The translations under genes and the position numbers were made by a program. 64,000 bases of DNA from Saprospiraceae bacterium (GTDB taxonomy: Bacteria; Bacteroidota; Bacteroidia; Chitinophagales; Saprospiraceae): contig JALHLK010000020.1 in the NCBI GenBank assembly GCA_022844565.1, positions 1 to 64,000 on the forward strand, given 5' to 3'. Below, one piece after another: positions 51,250 to 64,000 of this stretch (position 1 is its first letter; each line of letters begins with the position of its first letter). The notes under the pieces were generated by a model. That model was not told where the DNA came from. It searched no databases and saw only the letters and a program-made list of their open reading frames with translations.

Positions 51250-51296
51250 TATTGTAAATGCCTTGTTTTGATAAGAGTATTAACAAATTTTATTTC

Positions 51297-51341
51297 TTGC
51301 CATTTGACAATATAATTATCATAACATGTTACATAACTTTG
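51297..51341 (+). promoter_or_regulatory. TTGCC-ATTT-GACAA dyad + N23 + TAACTTTG
   Basis: Dyad 51297-51310; -7 match 51334-51341; upstream of the 51368 ORF. Confidence 0.7.
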
Positions 51342-51367
51342 TGAATTAAATTTCAAAGTACATTTAT

Positions 51368-52054
51368 ATGGAAAACAACACATATAAACTCGCCTCACTA
51401 GCGGCTTTTTTAACGGTAATTACCACTTTTTGTGTACATGTACTTTTTGCTGCTGGACCTACCGACTTTGAAGCAAGGATTTTATTATTCAAAGATCTAA
51501 TGTATATCATGCAAAGATGGGTAATCATTTTACATGGACTGTTGGTTTTTGTAACCATGTGGGGATTATTTTTGCATACTTATCGAAAAAGTCTCGTTTG
51601 GTCAGTTCCCGGACTCATTTTTTATACAGGTTTTATTATGGTAGAATTGGGTAGAATGATGTTTATTTTGTATTATTTAAATGGTCTACGCGAAAGATAT
51701 TTGACAGAAACGATGGCGACAACCAAGGAGATGTTGGCACATGATATCAATCAATTTACCTTAATTAGTTTTTCCTTATTTGGGCTGTTTATGCTTTTTA
51801 TTGCATTAGGAAATTTTTGTTTTGGTGCAGCGATGCTCAAAGTTGAAGGGTGGGGTAGAAAATTAGGTGTCTTATTACTCATATGGAGTGTACTCAATAT
51901 AATTGCACTTTTTAATCTTTCATATCAAAATCAAGTGATCTCAAAATTAATAGAATTTACTAATTTATATTTTCAAATGGGTATTCGATTGTCAATAGGG
52001 CTGTATCTATGGCATCTTGTGAAAATAAATAAGATATCAAATGTTATATATTAA
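51368..52054 (+). CDS. Multi-pass membrane protein, unknown function
   Basis: About 6 hydrophobic segments; long ORF with upstream promoter-like signals. Confidence 0.75.
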   Translation: MENNTYKLASLAAFLTVITTFCVHVLFAAGPTDFEARILLFKDLMYIMQRWVIILHGLLVFVTMWGLFLHTYRKSLVWSVPGLIFYTGFIMVELGRMMFILYYLNGLRERYLTETMATTKEMLAHDINQFTLISFSLFGLFMLFIALGNFCFGAAMLKVEGWGRKLGVLLLIWSVLNIIALFNLSYQNQVISKLIEFTNLYFQMGIRLSIGLYLWHLVKINKISNVIY

Positions 52055-52517
52055 AAAAAAACACAAAAAAATGAGAATTAAGAAAATGGTTCTAGTTTGG
52101 TTTTATTCTACTCTATTTACCGTAGCAATACATGGTCAAAAAGTTACTTCTATTGACATCGTCGAGGCTAAGGAGAAAGACATGGAAGAAGTTAATTATT
52201 TTTATGAAAAGAATTGGCTTGAATTTAGAAAAGAGGCATTGAAAAGTGGGTATATTACAGATTACAAATACTTGCAATCTCAGCCTGATTCACTTGGCAT
52301 GATAACCATGACTTTATTGACCGAATATAGTGATAGCACGATGTACAATAAAAGAGAGGAACACTTCAGGCCTATCATGAGTCGTATTTCGCCCAATGGT
52401 CCCAACTATTTGACCAATAGGAAAAACAAAGAATTTTTGAGATATATTCACGGTACAGATGGATTTCATAAATGGGAAGCCATCCAAAAATCAAAAAAGA
52501 AAGTAAAAAACAAGTAA
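52041..52517 (+). CDS. Small secreted hypothetical protein (start likely at MRIKKMVLVW)
   Basis: Signal-peptide-like N-terminus; overlaps the previous gene. Confidence 0.6.
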   Translation: MLYIKKKHKKMRIKKMVLVWFYSTLFTVAIHGQKVTSIDIVEAKEKDMEEVNYFYEKNWLEFRKEALKSGYITDYKYLQSQPDSLGMITMTLLTEYSDSTMYNKREEHFRPIMSRISPNGPNYLTNRKNKEFLRYIHGTDGFHKWEAIQKSKKKVKNK

Positions 52518-52701
52518 CTATTTAGGGCTTTGCGTTCGAATCATAAAGATAAGGACATTTAAGGCAGACGAGACATCGCTATTGACGAGAAAAAAGCCTG
52601 AAGTATTACTTAAATTGGACAGTTTTTGAGAAGACTGTCATAGGCCTTAATAGTTACTAAAAAAGATTAAAATTTTTCAAAACAATTTAAATACTTAAAA
52701 C

Positions 52702-53070
52702 ATGACAAATCCAGTAACGTGGTTTGAAATAGCAGCCACAGATTTAGAGAGAGCAAAAACATTTTACGAATCCGTTTTTGGAATTCAGTGCAATTATGTT
52801 GATATGCCAGGGTCACCGATGTATATGATGGGCTCAGATATGGCCGCTCCTGGGGCAGCAGGAGCATTGGTTAAGTCAGAAAACAATACTCCTTCTACAG
52901 ATGGAAATATGATCTACTTTGGATGTGCTGACGTCGCTGTCGAAGCTTCACGTGTAGAATCTGCTGGGGGTAAATTACTATTTCCAAAAGAAAGCATAGG
53001 CGAGTTTGGATTTATTGCACAGTTTATTGATACAGAAGGGAACAGGATAGGGTTGCATTCTAATCAATAA
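52702..53070 (+). CDS. VOC family (glyoxalase-like) protein
   Basis: PVTWFEIAATDLERAKTFYESVFG; FIDTEGNRIGLHS. Confidence 0.93.
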   Translation: MTNPVTWFEIAATDLERAKTFYESVFGIQCNYVDMPGSPMYMMGSDMAAPGAAGALVKSENNTPSTDGNMIYFGCADVAVEASRVESAGGKLLFPKESIGEFGFIAQFIDTEGNRIGLHSNQ

Positions 53071-53159
53071 AATTAAGTACTTAGCAATTTTGAAAATAGG
53101 AATTCGGTCCGGATTTTCATTTGAATTTTAATTTTACAAAGTTTAAACCAATACAGTAA

Positions 53160-53200
53160 GGACAAAAACAAAGTATGTTTTTCATCTTTTGTTTTTGTCC
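53160..53200. terminator. Hairpin GGACAAAAACAAA-N15-TTTGTTTTTGTCC
   Basis: Perfect 13-bp arms downstream of the VOC gene. Confidence 0.5.
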
Positions 53201-53362
53201 GATTCTGTCAAAAGAGTGGGTATGAAAATTACTAATTTTTTGAGTTACAACAGCAAAAAAATTGAGAATATTTTATGCTGGAATGGATTTTCCTTGTCTA
53301 AAAGATGTTAATAGTAAATCAATTTTAATAGAAATCTACGCTATGGCCACATGATTTTGGTC

Positions 53363-53794
53363 CTATAAGGTAATTAATTCTGGTCCTTTAATTTTAATCA
53401 CATGACAACAATCATGCCCTATCACAAATGACCTTTTTATTAAAACTTTTTCTTCTTTGTCAAAAATTGTGTATTCAATCATTTCTCCTGTAGGTTTGAT
53501 ATTTCTTACAAGATTATCATCAGCTATGGTGGCATAAAATGGACCGTGATCAAGAGGTTTGTTGAATGTGTATTCGTGGATGATATTATTTGTCTCAACT
53601 ATTCTGGAAGTGGCATGACTAAAAGATTTGATATCTAAGGTGGTTAGATCTATTGGAATAGTAATAGTAATCCACGATTTTGTACAGATGATATTGCCGG
53701 GAGGAGGGCAATCAATGTTATTGGTTACTAAATCTTCTTGCGCACATTTTGTAAATAATATCAACATTCCAAATAATAAAAACTGCTTTACCAT
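53363..53794 (-). CDS. Hypothetical lipoprotein
   Basis: MVKQFLLFGMLILFTKCAQE lipobox-like. Confidence 0.6.
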   Translation of the reverse strand: MVKQFLLFGMLILFTKCAQEDLVTNNIDCPPPGNIICTKSWITITIPIDLTTLDIKSFSHATSRIVETNNIIHEYTFNKPLDHGPFYATIADDNLVRNIKPTGEMIEYTIFDKEEKVLIKRSFVIGHDCCHVIKIKGPELITL

Positions 53795-53876
53795 GTTCTT
53801 TTTTTTTATTTAAAGACGTTCATTGAGATTAATTTGTTAGTAAAAAAAACCTTTTTATAACTTATAAAGGAATTAC

Positions 53877-53921
53877 TTGCCAAATGGCAATAACATTCTA
53901 ACTATTAATAACATACATTTG
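53877..53921 (+). promoter_or_regulatory. TTGCC-AAAT-GGCAA dyad + N23 + TACATTTG
   Basis: Dyad 53877-53890; -7 match 53914-53921. Confidence 0.72.
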
Positions 53922-53947
53922 TGTTATAAATGGATATTAAAAAAGCT

Positions 53948-54610
53948 ATGTGTAAATTCCTGCTTTCAACTTATATGTTTTTGTTTTTTATAATTTTTTC
54001 TTTTGGTTGTTCAAAGAAAAGTGAATTACTTTCTGATCCTATGGATATTAAGGTAGATGACCATTTCATTGAGGCGGAAGTAAATATTCTTTTTATAGGC
54101 AATAGCTTGACATATACCAATGATCTACCAAAACTCCTAAAGAATTTTGCATTTTCAAAAGGTAAGAAAATAAATGTGACTTGTCAATGTCTTCCAAATT
54201 ATGCATTGATAGATCATTGGACAGATGGCAAAATACAAAACCTGCTTAATTCAGAAAAATTTACCCATGTCATCATTCAACAAGGCCCATCATCTCAAGA
54301 AGAGGGGAGGCTCTGGCTTATGGAATATGGAGCAAAGATCAAAGAAGTGTGTGAAATAAATAAATCAAAATTGGCGTACTATATGGTATGGCCAGCAAGA
54401 TCTAATTATTTGACATTCGACGGTGTAATCAAAAATTATACAGACGCAGCGAAGGCTAATGAAGCAATACTTTGCCCAGTTGGACTTGAATGGAAAAAGC
54501 ACTTTGATCAAACCAATGACTTTTCACTTTATGGTCCTGACGAATTTCATCCTTCTTTAAAGGGCAGTATGAAAGCAGCAGAAATTATATATAGCTCAAT
54601 TTTTAAATAG
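53948..54610 (+). CDS. SGNH/GDSL hydrolase-like lipoprotein (ORF opens at 53930; Met at 53948 fits the promoter better)
   Basis: LFIGNSLTYTNDLPKLL; PDEFHPSLKGSMKAAEI; lipobox FSFGC. Confidence 0.8.
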   Translation: MCKFLLSTYMFLFFIIFSFGCSKKSELLSDPMDIKVDDHFIEAEVNILFIGNSLTYTNDLPKLLKNFAFSKGKKINVTCQCLPNYALIDHWTDGKIQNLLNSEKFTHVIIQQGPSSQEEGRLWLMEYGAKIKEVCEINKSKLAYYMVWPARSNYLTFDGVIKNYTDAAKANEAILCPVGLEWKKHFDQTNDFSLYGPDEFHPSLKGSMKAAEIIYSSIFK

Positions 54611-54733
54611 TAATAACTAGACAAATAAATATAAAAGATTATGCGACATTATTAAAAAGTGCGATTCTCATTAAGGCATAATTAATGATATTATTTAAAA
54701 TTAAGATTTAATTAACCTGTATATCGGGTTTTC

Positions 54734-54778
54734 TTGTCAAATGTCAAGAATATTATATGAAAAGCCATCCTATTTTTG
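54734..54778 (+). promoter_or_regulatory. TTGTC-AAAT-GTCAA dyad + N23 + TATTTTTG
   Basis: Dyad 54734-54747; -7 match 54771-54778. Confidence 0.72.
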
Positions 54779-54797: not shown

Positions 54798-56009
54798 ATG
54801 AAAAATTTAAAATTACAAATTTCTACATTCGCTGATCTTTACACTTTTTCATTTCTAACTACTTTTTTTTATAAATTCACAAAACTAATTGGACCAAAGC
54901 TGCAGTTATTGTTTTCAATAAATTTATTGCTTTTAAGTCCAGCTTTTTCGCAACTCCAACCACTTTCCACTCCCAATGCAGGTGGAAACAGAAAAGCGTC
55001 AGTTTCTGAATTTATAGGATTTTGCGAAGTGAAAATTAACTACAACCGCCCAACAGTTAAAGGCCGTGAGGGTAAAATATGGGGTACAGACATTGCACAT
55101 TATGGGTTTAAAGACCTTCAATTCGGGACCAGCAAAGCTGCTCCGTGGCGGGTAGGTGCAAATGAGTGTACTACAATTTTTTTGTCTACAGATGCTAAAA
55201 TAGAAGGAAAAGATATCAAAGCAGGAAGTTATGGGTTATTTATGAGTTTAGGAGAATTCGAAACCATCGTAATTTTCAATAAAAATACTACTGCTTGGGG
55301 AAGTTATTCTTATAATCCGGCCGATGATGTATTGCAAGTCACAGTAAAAAATGAATCACTTGATAAAAGTCAAGAATGGATGAAATTTGAATTTGAAAAT
55401 CAGACGGATAATTCAGCCATCATAGCTCTTTCTTGGGAAAAAAGGAAGATTCGTTTTAAAGTGGAGGTAGATGCTTTAAAGTTGCAATTTGAAAGTTTTA
55501 AAAAGGAACTAGAAACACCTAAAGGTTTTACCAGTGGAGCATTTTCACAAGCAGCTAACTTCTGTCTCAATAATAACTATGAGTTAGAACAAGGTTTTGA
55601 ATGGGCTAACAGAGCCATAGCTCCAGTTTTCCCAGGGGAGAAAAATTTTGGAACGCTCCAAACGGTTGCAAATTATTTAGAAAAACAAGGTAAACAAAAG
55701 GAGGCAGATGCTATGATGAAAGAAGCCATTCCTTTTGGAAAGGTCGGTCAGGTGAATGTTTATGCTAGAAAATTACTAGGTCAAAATCGAAATAAAGAAG
55801 CTTTTGAAATCTATCAAACTAATTACAATAAATTTCCAAATATCTTTGCCAGTAATTTTGGAATGGTTAGAGCTTATTCGGGCATGAATGACTTGAAGAA
55901 GGCTTTAGAATTTGCAAGGTTAGCTTTGGCTCAGGCCCCAAATGCAAATCAAAAGACCATTGTTGAGCAAATAATTAAGGATTTAGAAGCTGGAAAAAGT
56001 GTAAACTAA
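54798..56009 (+). CDS. DUF2911 domain protein with C-terminal TPR-like region
   Basis: VEVKINYNRPTVKGREGKIWG-type DUF2911 sequence; PWRVGANECTTIFLSTDAKIEGKDIKAGSYGLF. Confidence 0.88.
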   Translation: MKNLKLQISTFADLYTFSFLTTFFYKFTKLIGPKLQLLFSINLLLLSPAFSQLQPLSTPNAGGNRKASVSEFIGFCEVKINYNRPTVKGREGKIWGTDIAHYGFKDLQFGTSKAAPWRVGANECTTIFLSTDAKIEGKDIKAGSYGLFMSLGEFETIVIFNKNTTAWGSYSYNPADDVLQVTVKNESLDKSQEWMKFEFENQTDNSAIIALSWEKRKIRFKVEVDALKLQFESFKKELETPKGFTSGAFSQAANFCLNNNYELEQGFEWANRAIAPVFPGEKNFGTLQTVANYLEKQGKQKEADAMMKEAIPFGKVGQVNVYARKLLGQNRNKEAFEIYQTNYNKFPNIFASNFGMVRAYSGMNDLKKALEFARLALAQAPNANQKTIVEQIIKDLEAGKSVN

Positions 56010-56025
56010 TTTATAAAAATAAACA

Positions 56026-56448
56026 ATGAATAGCAAACTATTAATTTTCTTTTTGTTAATCAGCTTGAGCTCTTTCGCACAAAATGACAAGCAATTAGTC
56101 GAAAAAGCGATGATGAATTATTTGGATGCTTTGTATGACGCGAGACCAGAATTGATTAAAGAAAGTGTGCATCCGAAGCTAAATAAATTTGGTTTTTATC
56201 GAGAAGGAAAAGATAAACCATTTGGCAAGATGGGTCAAATGTCCTTTGAAAGATTAGAAAAATTGGCAGGAGAATGGAACGCTGCAAAGAAAACAATATC
56301 TATTCCGAAAAAAGTAGAAGTGTTAGCAGTTCACGATAAAATCGCAATAGGTAAGGTTAGTGCAGAGTGGGGTTTTGACTTTATTCAATTGGTGAAAGAG
56401 GACAATAAATGGTTGATCATTAATATTGTTTGGCAAAGTCCAGAGTAA
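56026..56448 (+). CDS. NTF2-like / putative lumazine-binding secreted protein
   Basis: VEKAMMNYLDALYDARPELIKESVHPKLNKFGFYR; signal peptide. Confidence 0.8.
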   Translation: MNSKLLIFFLLISLSSFAQNDKQLVEKAMMNYLDALYDARPELIKESVHPKLNKFGFYREGKDKPFGKMGQMSFERLEKLAGEWNAAKKTISIPKKVEVLAVHDKIAIGKVSAEWGFDFIQLVKEDNKWLIINIVWQSPE

Positions 56449-57670: not shown

Positions 57671-58672
57671 ATGCCATATCGTTTTATAAGAATATCAAAA
57701 ATGATAAAATTAGTTATTATGTGCAGAAATGTGATATTAAAATTTTTCTTTTATTTTCTCTTTACATTTTCAAAGGCAATTTGTCAACAAATTCCTATTA
57801 CACCAGAGATTTTTTTACCAGGAATTATTTCTACAGGTCTTAACGAAAGAGATTTCGCCATTTCTCCAGATGGAAAGACAATTTATTTCACTGTTGTTGC
57901 ACCCCAAAATGTAACGAGCAGTATATTTTTCATAAAAAAACTCTCTAATAATTCTTGGTCAAAACCTGAAATCGCCCCTTTTTCCGGAAATTACACTGAT
58001 CTTGAACCCTCCTTTTCTCCAGATGCTAATAGGATTTATTTTGCTTCAAAAAGACCTATAAACGGCAAAGAGAAAAATGATTTTGATCTCTGGTATGTCG
58101 AAAGAAACAATAATGGATGGTCTGCAGCGAGACATTTAGATTTTTGTACAGATAAAGACGAATTTTATCCTTCAGTCACAAATGACGGGTCAGTCTATTT
58201 TACCGCTAGTTATCATCACGAAACAGGTAAAGAAGACATTTTTGTAAGCCGACATGTCAACAATAAATATGAAGAACCTACTGCCATGGATACAACTATC
58301 AACTCATCATTGTACGAGTTTAATTCCTACATTTCACCTGATGAATCATTTATCATTTTCACAGCATACGGCAGAAAAGGAGATAAAGGAAGAGGTGATC
58401 TGTATCTGAGTAAAAGAGTGGGTGGAAAATGGCAACCCGCCAAACCTTTCACTCAAATCAACTCCGACAAGCTGGATTATTGTCCTACAGTCAGTTTTGA
58501 TAAAAAAATTTTGTATTTTACAAGCGAGAGGACTAAGATAAAATCTAATGAGACAGGTAAGACACTCAAATATAACGATTTTATTAAGTTTCAGTATTCA
58601 ACTGGAAATGGATTAGGAGATATTTATTGGGTAAAATTTGAAGAAACTCCACTTGATGGAAGATTACATTAA
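57671..58672 (+). CDS. WD40-like PD40/TolB beta-propeller secreted protein
   Basis: FAISPDGKTIYFTVV; EPSFSPDANRIYFASKRP; PTVSFDKKILYFTSER. Confidence 0.85.
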   Translation: MPYRFIRISKMIKLVIMCRNVILKFFFYFLFTFSKAICQQIPITPEIFLPGIISTGLNERDFAISPDGKTIYFTVVAPQNVTSSIFFIKKLSNNSWSKPEIAPFSGNYTDLEPSFSPDANRIYFASKRPINGKEKNDFDLWYVERNNNGWSAARHLDFCTDKDEFYPSVTNDGSVYFTASYHHETGKEDIFVSRHVNNKYEEPTAMDTTINSSLYEFNSYISPDESFIIFTAYGRKGDKGRGDLYLSKRVGGKWQPAKPFTQINSDKLDYCPTVSFDKKILYFTSERTKIKSNETGKTLKYNDFIKFQYSTGNGLGDIYWVKFEETPLDGRLH

Positions 58673-61915: not shown

Positions 61916-63034
61916 TTGTACTTAAATATTAGAAGTTCGTATAGAGTTTCTTTTTATTCATACTATCTTTTGAAAATTAAGCTAATAATCAAATATCTTT
62001 GTGCAATAAACCAAGATTTGAAAAATCGTAAAAAAATAAATATTATCCTCATTCACACTTTGTTTTGGGTTTCGTTTTTTTGTTCACGTTTTTTGTTAAA
62101 TGTGCAATCAGAGATAACATTTCATCAAGTATTAGATACTTTGACTCATTCATTTCCGACGGTTATATTATTTTATGTGCTCCTGCTTGGAGTTACAAGG
62201 TTTTTGGAGATTGATAGATTACTATTATTCTGGGTTTGCACTGTAACATTGATATTTCTTTATGCTTTGGTAAGAAATTCTGGCATGTATATGTTGGATG
62301 CTGAGATATGGACAAAAAAAGACTATAATTTTATGTTCAAATCCAATATATGGAATGGTATTATTTTCTGTCTCTTATCTTTGGGATACTATTATTTGCA
62401 AAAGCAACAAGAATCAGAAAATAAAAATTTCATATTAAAATCGCAGCTTAATCAACGCGAATTAGACTACCTTAAAGCGCAAATGAATCCTCATTTTCTC
62501 TACAATACATTAAATTCTATCTATTCTGATGCATATGAAACAAACCCAAAACTAGCACGATCTATACTTGCTTTATCCGAAATGATGAGATATAGTTTTG
62601 ATAGGCCAGAACAAAAAGGATTGGTTAAACTCAAAGATGAATTAGATATTATCGATCAATATTTAGAAATTCAAAAGTCCAGATTCGGTGAAAAATTGAA
62701 TATAAATTTTGAAAAGGTAGGTACGTATAACTCCGAAGTTAATTATATTTTGCCTTTTGTATTAATAACCGTAGTTGAAAATGTTTTTAAACATGGTGTT
62801 TTTACAAAGAGAGATAAACCAGTCTCTATTTTGCTTTATGCTAACACACAAAATTTAACCTTTGATTGTAAGAATTATAAAACTAAAAGTGTACAAATAG
62901 ATGGGCCTTCAAATGGGAATGGAATCGAAAAAATAAAACGGATGTTGGAATTGAGCTATCCTAATCAATATAAAATGGATATCATTGAGGATGAAAATAT
63001 TTTTGAAATTAAGATGATAATTCCTTTGACATGA
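61916..63034 (+). CDS. LytS/YehU-like sensor histidine kinase
   Basis: LKAQMNPHFLYNTLNSIYSDA; LVKLKDELDIIDQYLEIQKSRFGEKL. Confidence 0.93.
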   Translation: MYLNIRSSYRVSFYSYYLLKIKLIIKYLCAINQDLKNRKKINIILIHTLFWVSFFCSRFLLNVQSEITFHQVLDTLTHSFPTVILFYVLLLGVTRFLEIDRLLLFWVCTVTLIFLYALVRNSGMYMLDAEIWTKKDYNFMFKSNIWNGIIFCLLSLGYYYLQKQQESENKNFILKSQLNQRELDYLKAQMNPHFLYNTLNSIYSDAYETNPKLARSILALSEMMRYSFDRPEQKGLVKLKDELDIIDQYLEIQKSRFGEKLNINFEKVGTYNSEVNYILPFVLITVVENVFKHGVFTKRDKPVSILLYANTQNLTFDCKNYKTKSVQIDGPSNGNGIEKIKRMLELSYPNQYKMDIIEDENIFEIKMIIPLT

Positions 63035-63744
63035 TGAATTGTGTAATATTAGATGATGAACCAGCGGCAATTCAACTACTCTCAAGATATGTAGAGAAAG
63101 TACCTTTTTTATATTTGGTAAAAACTTTTGAAGACCCTATAGAAGCGATGCTGTATTTTCAACAAAATTGTGTCGATTTACTCTTTTTAGACATCAATAT
63201 GCCTGACATCAACGGTATAGAATTTTCAAAAATACTCAGCACGAAAGCTAAGATTATCTTTACCACGGCCCACAGTGAGTTTGCTCTACAGGGTTTTGAT
63301 GTAAATGCAACTGATTACTTACTTAAACCCTTCTCTTTTGAAAGATTTTTTAAAGCATGCTGTAGAGTATTTGATAATCTTTTAGTTAGTACAGATGAAC
63401 TAATTAAAGTGTCGGACTATATCTTTGTTAAAAGTGGAACTTCTTATCTCAAAATCTATTACCATGATATTGTATATGTTGAAAGCAGACGAAATAACTT
63501 AATCATTCAAACGAAGGGCGAAGAAATTTTGATCTATGGATCACTTGTAGATTTTATTAAAAAACTTCCTCCTATATTATTTATCCGAATCCACAAATCT
63601 TTCTTAATCAATAAAGAATTAATAAAAGAAGCAAACATTGAAGAGGTTATTTTATCACATGAGCAAAAAAAGTATTCAATCCCGATAGGGTATGTTTATA
63701 AAGGTGCATTTCTAGAATTTTTGAAAAATAAGTCTTTAAACTGA
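63031..63744 (+). CDS. LytTR family response regulator
   Basis: VILDDEPAAIQLL...FLDINMPDINGIEFSK...LKPFSFERF; LytTR IHKSFLINK. Confidence 0.95.
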   Translation: MMNCVILDDEPAAIQLLSRYVEKVPFLYLVKTFEDPIEAMLYFQQNCVDLLFLDINMPDINGIEFSKILSTKAKIIFTTAHSEFALQGFDVNATDYLLKPFSFERFFKACCRVFDNLLVSTDELIKVSDYIFVKSGTSYLKIYYHDIVYVESRRNNLIIQTKGEEILIYGSLVDFIKKLPPILFIRIHKSFLINKELIKEANIEEVILSHEQKKYSIPIGYVYKGAFLEFLKNKSLN

Positions 63745-63818: not shown

Positions 63819-64000
63819 ATGTTTGATTTGATTTATAATTTATCAGTCAGAAAATTAAAAGAAAACATGAAGGCTATTCAAGAAATTTATAAAGAACTTA
63901 TGATTTATCCAAAGATTCAACAAGAACTTATAAATAGTCATAAACAAGAATATCTAGAAAAAAAAACTATTATCTTAAAACCTGGTGAAATATTAGATGG
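63819..64000 (+). CDS. 5' part of a CDS cut by the window edge; possibly Crp/Fnr-like
   Basis: ATG frame MFDLIYNLSVRKLKENMKAIQEIYKELMIYPKIQQELINSHKQEYLEKKTIILKPGEILDG open to the end. Confidence 0.4.
   Translation, partial: MFDLIYNLSVRKLKENMKAIQEIYKELMIYPKIQQELINSHKQEYLEKKTIILKPGEILD

What the first reader, a model, noticed from the sequence alone, without database searches (positions are those of the whole stretch)
51297..54778. Three identical-architecture promoters: TTGnC-N4-GnCAA, exactly 23 nt, TAnnTTTG
TTGCCATTTGACAA (51297-51310)/TAACTTTG (51334-51341); TTGCCAAATGGCAA (53877-53890)/TACATTTG (53914-53921); TTGTCAAATGTCAA (54734-54747)/TATTTTTG (54771-54778). Each dyad is separated from a perfect -7 element by exactly 23 nt. 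TTGnC-N4-GnCAA is the form of Crp/Fnr-superfamily sites (e.g. NnrR/HcpR-like TTGAC-N4-GTCAA). With a TSS about 4-5 nt after the -7 box, the dyad centre falls near -41.5, the class II activator position. The genes controlled (membrane protein, SGNH lipoprotein, DUF2911 operon) have no known link, so this would be an undescribed regulon.
Basis: partly seen in the sequence, partly recalled or inferred. Interest (0 to 1): 0.78.

Follow-up and report, generated by a model that had tools for sequence, protein, structure and literature searches.

The report
Crp/Fnr-type activator promoters in Bacteroidota
The three matching promoters are real, and they belong to a phylum-wide but apparently undescribed group of switches in which a small Crp/Fnr-type protein binds a mirror-image DNA site at one fixed distance upstream of the RNA polymerase start box, usually next to its own gene.

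Summary
Three TTGnC-N4-GnCAA dyads lie 23 nt upstream of TAnnTTTG. About 0.07 are expected in the whole 5.6 Mb genome at one fixed gap; four exist. The fourth precedes a duplicated copy of the SGNH gene.

The Crp/Fnr reading is strongly supported by comparative genomics. The CDS at 63819 does encode a Crp/Fnr regulator, and its closest paralogs lie on the contigs that carry the intergenic dyads. In 80 loci holding relatives of these regulators across Bacteroidota, complete dyads sit at exactly N22 from a near-perfect -7 box 53 times, against 0-10 (mostly 0-3) at other spacings. 77 of 80 loci have a strong or weak version, typically just 3' of the regulator gene and about 72 nt before the next start codon. 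A scan of 393 genomes with no regulator requirement gives 18 of 31 hits at N22.

An RNA-hairpin (terminator) reading fails: stem positions do not covary. Recognition-helix residue 181 is Thr/Ser instead of Glu, and the matching A of TTGAC becomes Y, fitting a published specificity code.

N22 puts the dyad at -41.5 (class II); the window's N23 at -42.5. Still inferred: activation, the signal, and which of three regulators is cognate.

The parts
51296..51310 (+). Operator 1, (C)TTGCCATTTGACAA, predicted Crp/Fnr-type site
   Evidence: PWM score 19.0, one of only three hits in the window
51334..51341 (+). -7 box TAACTTTG, N23 from operator 1
51368..52054 (+). 228-aa membrane protein, first gene behind promoter 1 (no Pfam or NCBIfam match)
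53876..53890 (+). Operator 2, (C)TTGCCAAATGGCAA
   Evidence: PWM score 20.0; duplicated at C11:108460
53914..53921 (+). -7 box TACATTTG, N23 from operator 2
53930..54610 (+). SGNH-like lipoprotein gene behind promoter 2; 76% identical paralog on C11 with its own N23 promoter
54733..54748 (+). Operator 3, CTTGTCAAATGTCAAG
   Evidence: PWM score 21.6; also found by the phylum scan
54771..54778 (+). -7 box TATTTTTG, N23 from operator 3
54798..56009 (+). DUF2911 protein, first gene behind promoter 3, followed by a lumazine-binding-like gene at 56026-56448
52702..53070 (+). VOC/glyoxalase gene inside the cluster, 44% identical to the commonest target of these regulators elsewhere; no strong site of its own
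63819..64000 (+). Start of the Crp/Fnr regulator gene C20a (203 aa, runs past the window end to C20:64427 plus stop); recognition helix TETSLSR

Best explanation
The three elements are operators of a Crp/Fnr-superfamily dimer that works as a class II activator on Bacteroidota sigma-A promoters. The dimer binds CTTGYC-N4-GRCAAG centred at about -41.5/-42.5; the promoter-proximal half lies where a -33 element would be, and the protein contacts RNA polymerase bound at TAnnTTTG. The regulators are small (about 190-203 aa) and form a subfamily with recognition helix T[DEN][TS][ST]LSR. Elsewhere their gene usually lies directly upstream of the controlled gene (VOC/glyoxalase, PhnB-like, YCII, DinB, SRPBCC, small membrane proteins). 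In the window genome, three promoters on C20 plus the copy on C11 form a small regulon served by one or more of the regulators C20a (window 63819), C20b (C20:72841) and C11a (C11:111119). Shown here by computation: site architecture, its phylum-wide conservation, and linkage to the regulator genes. Inferred: binding, activation rather than repression, TSS position, and cognate pairing in this genome. The signal is unknown.
For: Exact composites, about 0.07 expected genome-wide per fixed gap, 4 found. CDS 63819 is a Crp/Fnr protein: Pfam cNMP_binding E 3e-12; AlphaFold pLDDT 92 with a C-terminal HTH; Foldseek to FNR and other Crp/Fnr chains E about 1e-12 over ~195 columns; profile match to the Bacteroidota structure 3dn7 over 186 residues, 5e-23. 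The three closest of its 13 paralogs are on C20, C11 and C62, the contigs with the intergenic sites. 80 related loci: 8/8 dyad with a -7 box of at least 5/6 gives N22 = 53, other gaps 0-10; with a perfect box N22 = 17, all others together 1. 77 of 80 loci hold a strong or weak version; median dyad-to-ATG 72 nt. Flanking C (71/75) and G (68/75), not used for selection, extend the palindrome, and all window sites carry that C. Unconditioned scan of 393 genomes: 18 of 31 hits at N22; 13 of 17 fetched N22 loci have a Crp recognition helix within 1.5 kb, 0 of 13 at other gaps. Specificity code of PMC1274295 (R180-G3, E181-A6): E181 to T/S goes with A to Y (72/75), while xET paralogs have TTGAT or TTGAC at N22. 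-7 box at -12 to -5 (PMC9723704).
Against: The window sites are at N23, one base off the norm. Only one other regulator clade with N23 was found (L266-L268), and its grouping with the window regulators disappears when long branches are removed. C20a lies 9 kb from the sites, and neither C20a nor C20b has a detectable site of its own next to it. A fifth site, C11:110902, has no obvious sense gene downstream. No transcript data.
Confidence: 0.87

Rival explanations
1. Same Crp/Fnr operators, but the bound protein represses: it covers -35 to -48 and blocks RNA polymerase until a signal releases it.
For: Position alone does not prove activation; a -7 box with consensus match 6/6 (window sites) could work without an activator.
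Against: Strict one-base spacing between dyad and -7 box is what class II contact needs and a repressor does not. In the N22 set the -7 box is often imperfect (CAnnTTTG, GAnnTTTG, TTCCTTTG). No TTTG -33 element at 19-21 nt is seen in the window sites.
Confidence: 0.1
2. The dyads are RNA hairpins, such as intrinsic terminators of the upstream regulator gene, since they often start 4-20 nt after its stop codon and T-rich DNA follows.
For: Position behind the crp stop codon and T-rich positions 16-23.
Against: Stem positions 4/11 pair in 31 of 73 sites against 32.5 expected by shuffling, and 6/9 in 19 against 35.5. Spacing to the -7 box is fixed. 22 sites lie elsewhere than directly behind the regulator stop (overlapping it, or up to 2.7 kb away) or beside a regulator not located. 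Window sites follow other genes and lack a T tract.
Confidence: 0.02
3. The window sites are read by a transcription factor of another family with a similar palindrome, and the neighbouring Crp/Fnr genes are coincidental.
For: In the window the nearest regulator gene is 9 kb away; a LytTR response regulator (63031) is also near.
Against: The extended motif and the regulator genes go together across the phylum; LytTR sites are direct repeats (own knowledge); the motif fits the Crp/Fnr specificity code.
Confidence: 0.04
4. Chance resemblance plus duplication: a single promoter copied within the cluster.
For: 53877 and C11:108460 are copies.
Against: 51297 and 54734 do not align with the other cluster, their flanks differ, and the architecture recurs in dozens of unrelated loci.
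Confidence: 0.01

Closest known systems
FNR and DNR operators (TTGAT-N4-ATCAA; CTTGATnnnnATCAAG, PMC1274295)
   Same: 5-4-5 palindrome, flanking C/G, Crp/Fnr fold, class II position
   Different: Half-site TTGYC instead of TTGAT; Glu181 equivalent replaced by Thr/Ser; no cysteines in C20a or C11a, so no Fe-S sensing of the FNR type
HcpR1 (wyTTGACnnnnGTCAArw, PMC1274295)
   Same: TTGnC-N4-GnCAA is the nearest published motif
   Different: HcpR1 keeps Glu181 and A in TTGAC and controls hcp/frdX; here position 4 is C or T in 72 of 75 sites and the targets are VOC, PhnB-like, YCII, DinB and membrane proteins
E. coli CRP class II promoters (e.g. galP1; own knowledge)
   Same: Dimer at -41.5 overlapping the upstream promoter element
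   Different: TGTGA half-sites, cAMP, sigma70 -10 hexamer; here the Bacteroidota TAnnTTTG box
Bacteroidota sigma-A promoters (TTTG at -33, TAnnTTTG at -7; PMC7366714, PMC9723704)
   Same: -7 box
   Different: The -33 place is taken by the activator half-site
3dn7, Cytophaga hutchinsonii cyclic nucleotide binding regulatory protein
   Same: Closest solved structure by sequence profile, same size class
   Different: The match gives no target or operator

Membership tests
Crp/Fnr superfamily regulator (C20a, CDS 63819) | N-terminal cNMP-binding beta-roll | tested here: met
   PF00027 E 3.3e-12
Crp/Fnr superfamily regulator (C20a, CDS 63819) | Long dimerisation helix and C-terminal HTH | tested here: met
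   AlphaFold model with helices 133-159, 182-189, 193-202; Foldseek to full-length FNR and other Crp/Fnr chains. The HTH is not seen by Pfam
Crp/Fnr superfamily regulator (C20a, CDS 63819) | Arg185 equivalent in the recognition helix | tested here: met
   S197/R198 (the SR of SLSR) invariant in 33 sequences
Crp/Fnr class II operator (the three window sites) | Palindrome centred about -41.5 overlapping the upstream promoter element | tested here: inconclusive
   N22 gives -41.5 and N23 -42.5 if the -7 box is -12 to -5; no TSS data
FNR proper | N-terminal cysteines for a 4Fe-4S cluster | tested here: not met
   No cysteine in C20a or C11a
FNR / DNR / HcpR1 specificity | Glu181 equivalent with A in TTGA | tested here: not met
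   Residue is Thr/Ser and the base is C/T in 72 of 75 sites
cAMP-responsive CRP | Arg82-Ser83 of the phosphate-binding cassette | tested here: inconclusive
   By-eye alignment only: Arg82 appears replaced in C20a and C11a
Operator binding and activation | The regulator binds the dyad and stimulates transcription | not testable with these tools
   Needs EMSA and reporter assays

The most novel reading that the evidence does not exclude
Bacteroidota run a large, largely unrecognised layer of one-regulator/one-target class II switches by Crp/Fnr paralogs (14 matches in this genome). The dyad replaces the -33 element at a one-base-exact distance, and half-site sequence can be read from recognition-helix residues 180/181, with a minority of regulators having moved to a -42.5 register. 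They would control small detoxification-type genes (VOC, PhnB-like, YCII, DinB, SRPBCC), much as some ECF sigma factors do in other phyla.
Probability: 0.55. Interest if true: 0.7.

Novelty: new variant of a known kind. Interest (0 to 1): 0.6.

Why it matters
Promoter control in Bacteroidota is poorly mapped: the -7 box is known, the -33 element is weak, and activators with a known site and spacing are few. A motif with exact geometry that can be paired with the regulator next to it makes dozens of anonymous Crp/Fnr genes testable at once, gives a natural data set for protein-DNA specificity in this fold (Thr/Ser at 181 with TTGYC), and offers compact regulator-promoter pairs that could be built into reporters.

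Tried and rejected
RNA hairpin/terminator reading: rejected by pair counts. N23 as a shared trait of the window regulators and L266-L268: seen in one tree (support 83/83) but lost when the long-branch rows are left out, so not claimed. Counts from the 3-mismatch scan were not used as statistics: its control is the reversed pattern. SGNH homologues in other relatives have no such site upstream, so the link between SGNH and the site is local to this genome. Close relatives (>50% identical) of C11a were sought in about 650 genome searches of family and order and not found. A possible degenerate site before the VOC gene (CTGTCATAGGCCTT, near 52640) did not pass the PWM thresholds. NCBIfam gave only sub-threshold CRP/FNR matches for the regulators. 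Paper searches found no description of this motif or subfamily; subscription papers are not covered.

Full report
WHAT IS THERE. The three composites are exactly as described. In 64 kb there are only three TTGNC-N4-GNCAA dyads, and each has TANNTTTG 23 nt downstream. Composition gives 0.07 expected in the 5.59 Mb genome for any one gap. The genome-wide scan with gaps 10-40 found nine hits: four at N23 (three in the window, one at C11:108460) and five at other gaps inside genes. The dyad form TTGNCAWWTGNCAA occurs 15 times; the intergenic ones outside a low-complexity repeat are the four composites plus C62:11112, which lies 218 bp behind a Crp/Fnr gene and before a YCII gene, with N22-CATCTTTG.

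THE REGULATORS. The CDS at 63819 is a 203-aa Crp/Fnr protein. The genome has 14 matches to it; after itself the best three are C20:72856, C11:111134 and C62:10376, which are on the contigs with the sites. The predicted structure is confident (pLDDT 92) and matches FNR and other Crp/Fnr structures along its length. The best solved relative by profile is 3dn7 from Cytophaga. C11 and C20 share a segmental duplication: SGNH gene with its site, a TolB-like gene, and the regulator gene, 77-83% identical in DNA. The site at 53877 and the one on C11 are therefore not independent.

THE COMPARATIVE TEST. Eighty loci encoding relatives of the four regulators (Flavobacteriaceae, Chitinophagaceae, Sphingobacteriaceae, Dysgonomonadaceae, Cytophagales, a few outside Bacteroidota) were fetched. 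In these 0.8 Mb, 8/8 dyads with a -7 box of at least 5/6 occur at N22 53 times; every other gap from 5 to 45 gives 0-10, mostly 0-3. With a perfect box the numbers are 17 at N22 and 1 at all others. 77 of 80 loci hold at least one candidate at a looser threshold. The dyad usually starts 4-60 nt after the regulator stop codon (sometimes overlapping it, sometimes 0.7-2.7 kb away) and a median of 72 nt before the next ATG. The aligned sites show a longer palindrome than was searched for, ATTTCTTGYCATANGRCAAG, with C at -1 in 71/75 and G at +15 in 68/75. A scan of 393 phylum genomes for CTTGNC-N4-GNCAAG with any gap, without reference to regulators, gave 18 of 31 hits at N22; 13 of 17 fetched N22 loci carry a Crp/Fnr recognition helix within 1.5 kb, against 0 of 13 at other gaps. 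A caveat on independence: several of the 80 loci are closely related (e.g. Arenibacter, Zobellia, Algibacter), so 53 is not 53 independent events; the tree still spreads the sites over many deep branches.

GEOMETRY. With the -7 box at -12 to -5 (PMC9723704), N22 puts the dyad centre at -41.5, the class II position, and N23 at -42.5. A -33 TTTG element is not seen in the window promoters. N23 occurs in the window genome and in one other regulator clade of the same order, L266-L268, which also have two dyads in tandem. Whether that clade is the sister of the window regulators depends on long branches.

SPECIFICITY. PMC1274295 showed that residue 180 goes with base 3 and residue 181 with base 6 of the half-site (T3 T4 G5 A6 C7). 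The subfamily has Thr or Ser at 181, and base 6 is C or T in 72 of 75 sites. Paralogs with Glu at 181 in the same genome and elsewhere have A there (TTGAT or TTGAC), again at N22 (small numbers, five perfect cases). The Arg180 paralog C11b has a GTGAC half-site, also as the code predicts, though only in one of its two halves.

TARGETS. Pfam on 55 first genes behind sites, including four from the window: VOC/glyoxalase 19, PhnB-like 10, YCII 7, DinB 6, DUF1569 3, plus SDR, SRPBCC, DUF1801 and unnamed membrane proteins (families overlap). The window cluster contains a VOC gene 44% identical to such a target. This suggests stress or detoxification roles, but that is inference.

ALTERNATIVES. The RNA-hairpin reading is contradicted by the absence of pairing at positions 4/11 and 6/9. 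A repressor is possible, but does not explain one-base-exact spacing. Another protein family is unlikely given the linkage.

WHAT IS NOT SHOWN. No binding, TSS or expression data; the cognate regulator among C20a, C20b and C11a is not settled (neither C20a nor C20b has a site beside it); the effector is unknown. Literature searches found no description of this subfamily or motif, within open-licence papers only.

Noticed in passing
L051:7903 (C11:110902): A fifth site, CTTACCAAATGACAAG-N23-TACTTTTA, lies between the TolB-like gene and the convergent regulator gene with no sense gene downstream; it would read antisense to the regulator C11a.
   Followed up: partly
window 53930-54610 and 57671-58672; C11:108537-110884: SGNH lipoprotein, TolB-like protein and Crp/Fnr regulator genes are present twice in the genome (C20 and C11), 77-83% identical in DNA, in rearranged order.
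   Followed up: yes
L266, L267, L268: Regulators of the same order with N23 sites carry two CTTGNC-N4-GNCAAG-like dyads in tandem, about 22 or 48 nt apart, before a VOC or DinB gene.
   Followed up: partly
L096:2829, L098:5309, L095:4684: Other Crp/Fnr paralogs of this genome have TTGAT-N4-ATCAA or GTGAC-N4-GTCAA dyads, also 22 nt before a -7-like box and before the neighbouring gene.
   Followed up: partly
L177: A MAG labelled Limnohabitans (Pseudomonadota) carries a typical Bacteroidota regulator-site-target unit; probably a misbinned contig.
   Followed up: no
window 61916-63744: A histidine kinase (His_kinase) and LytTR response regulator pair sits just before the Crp/Fnr gene at 63819, transcribed in the same direction.
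   Followed up: no
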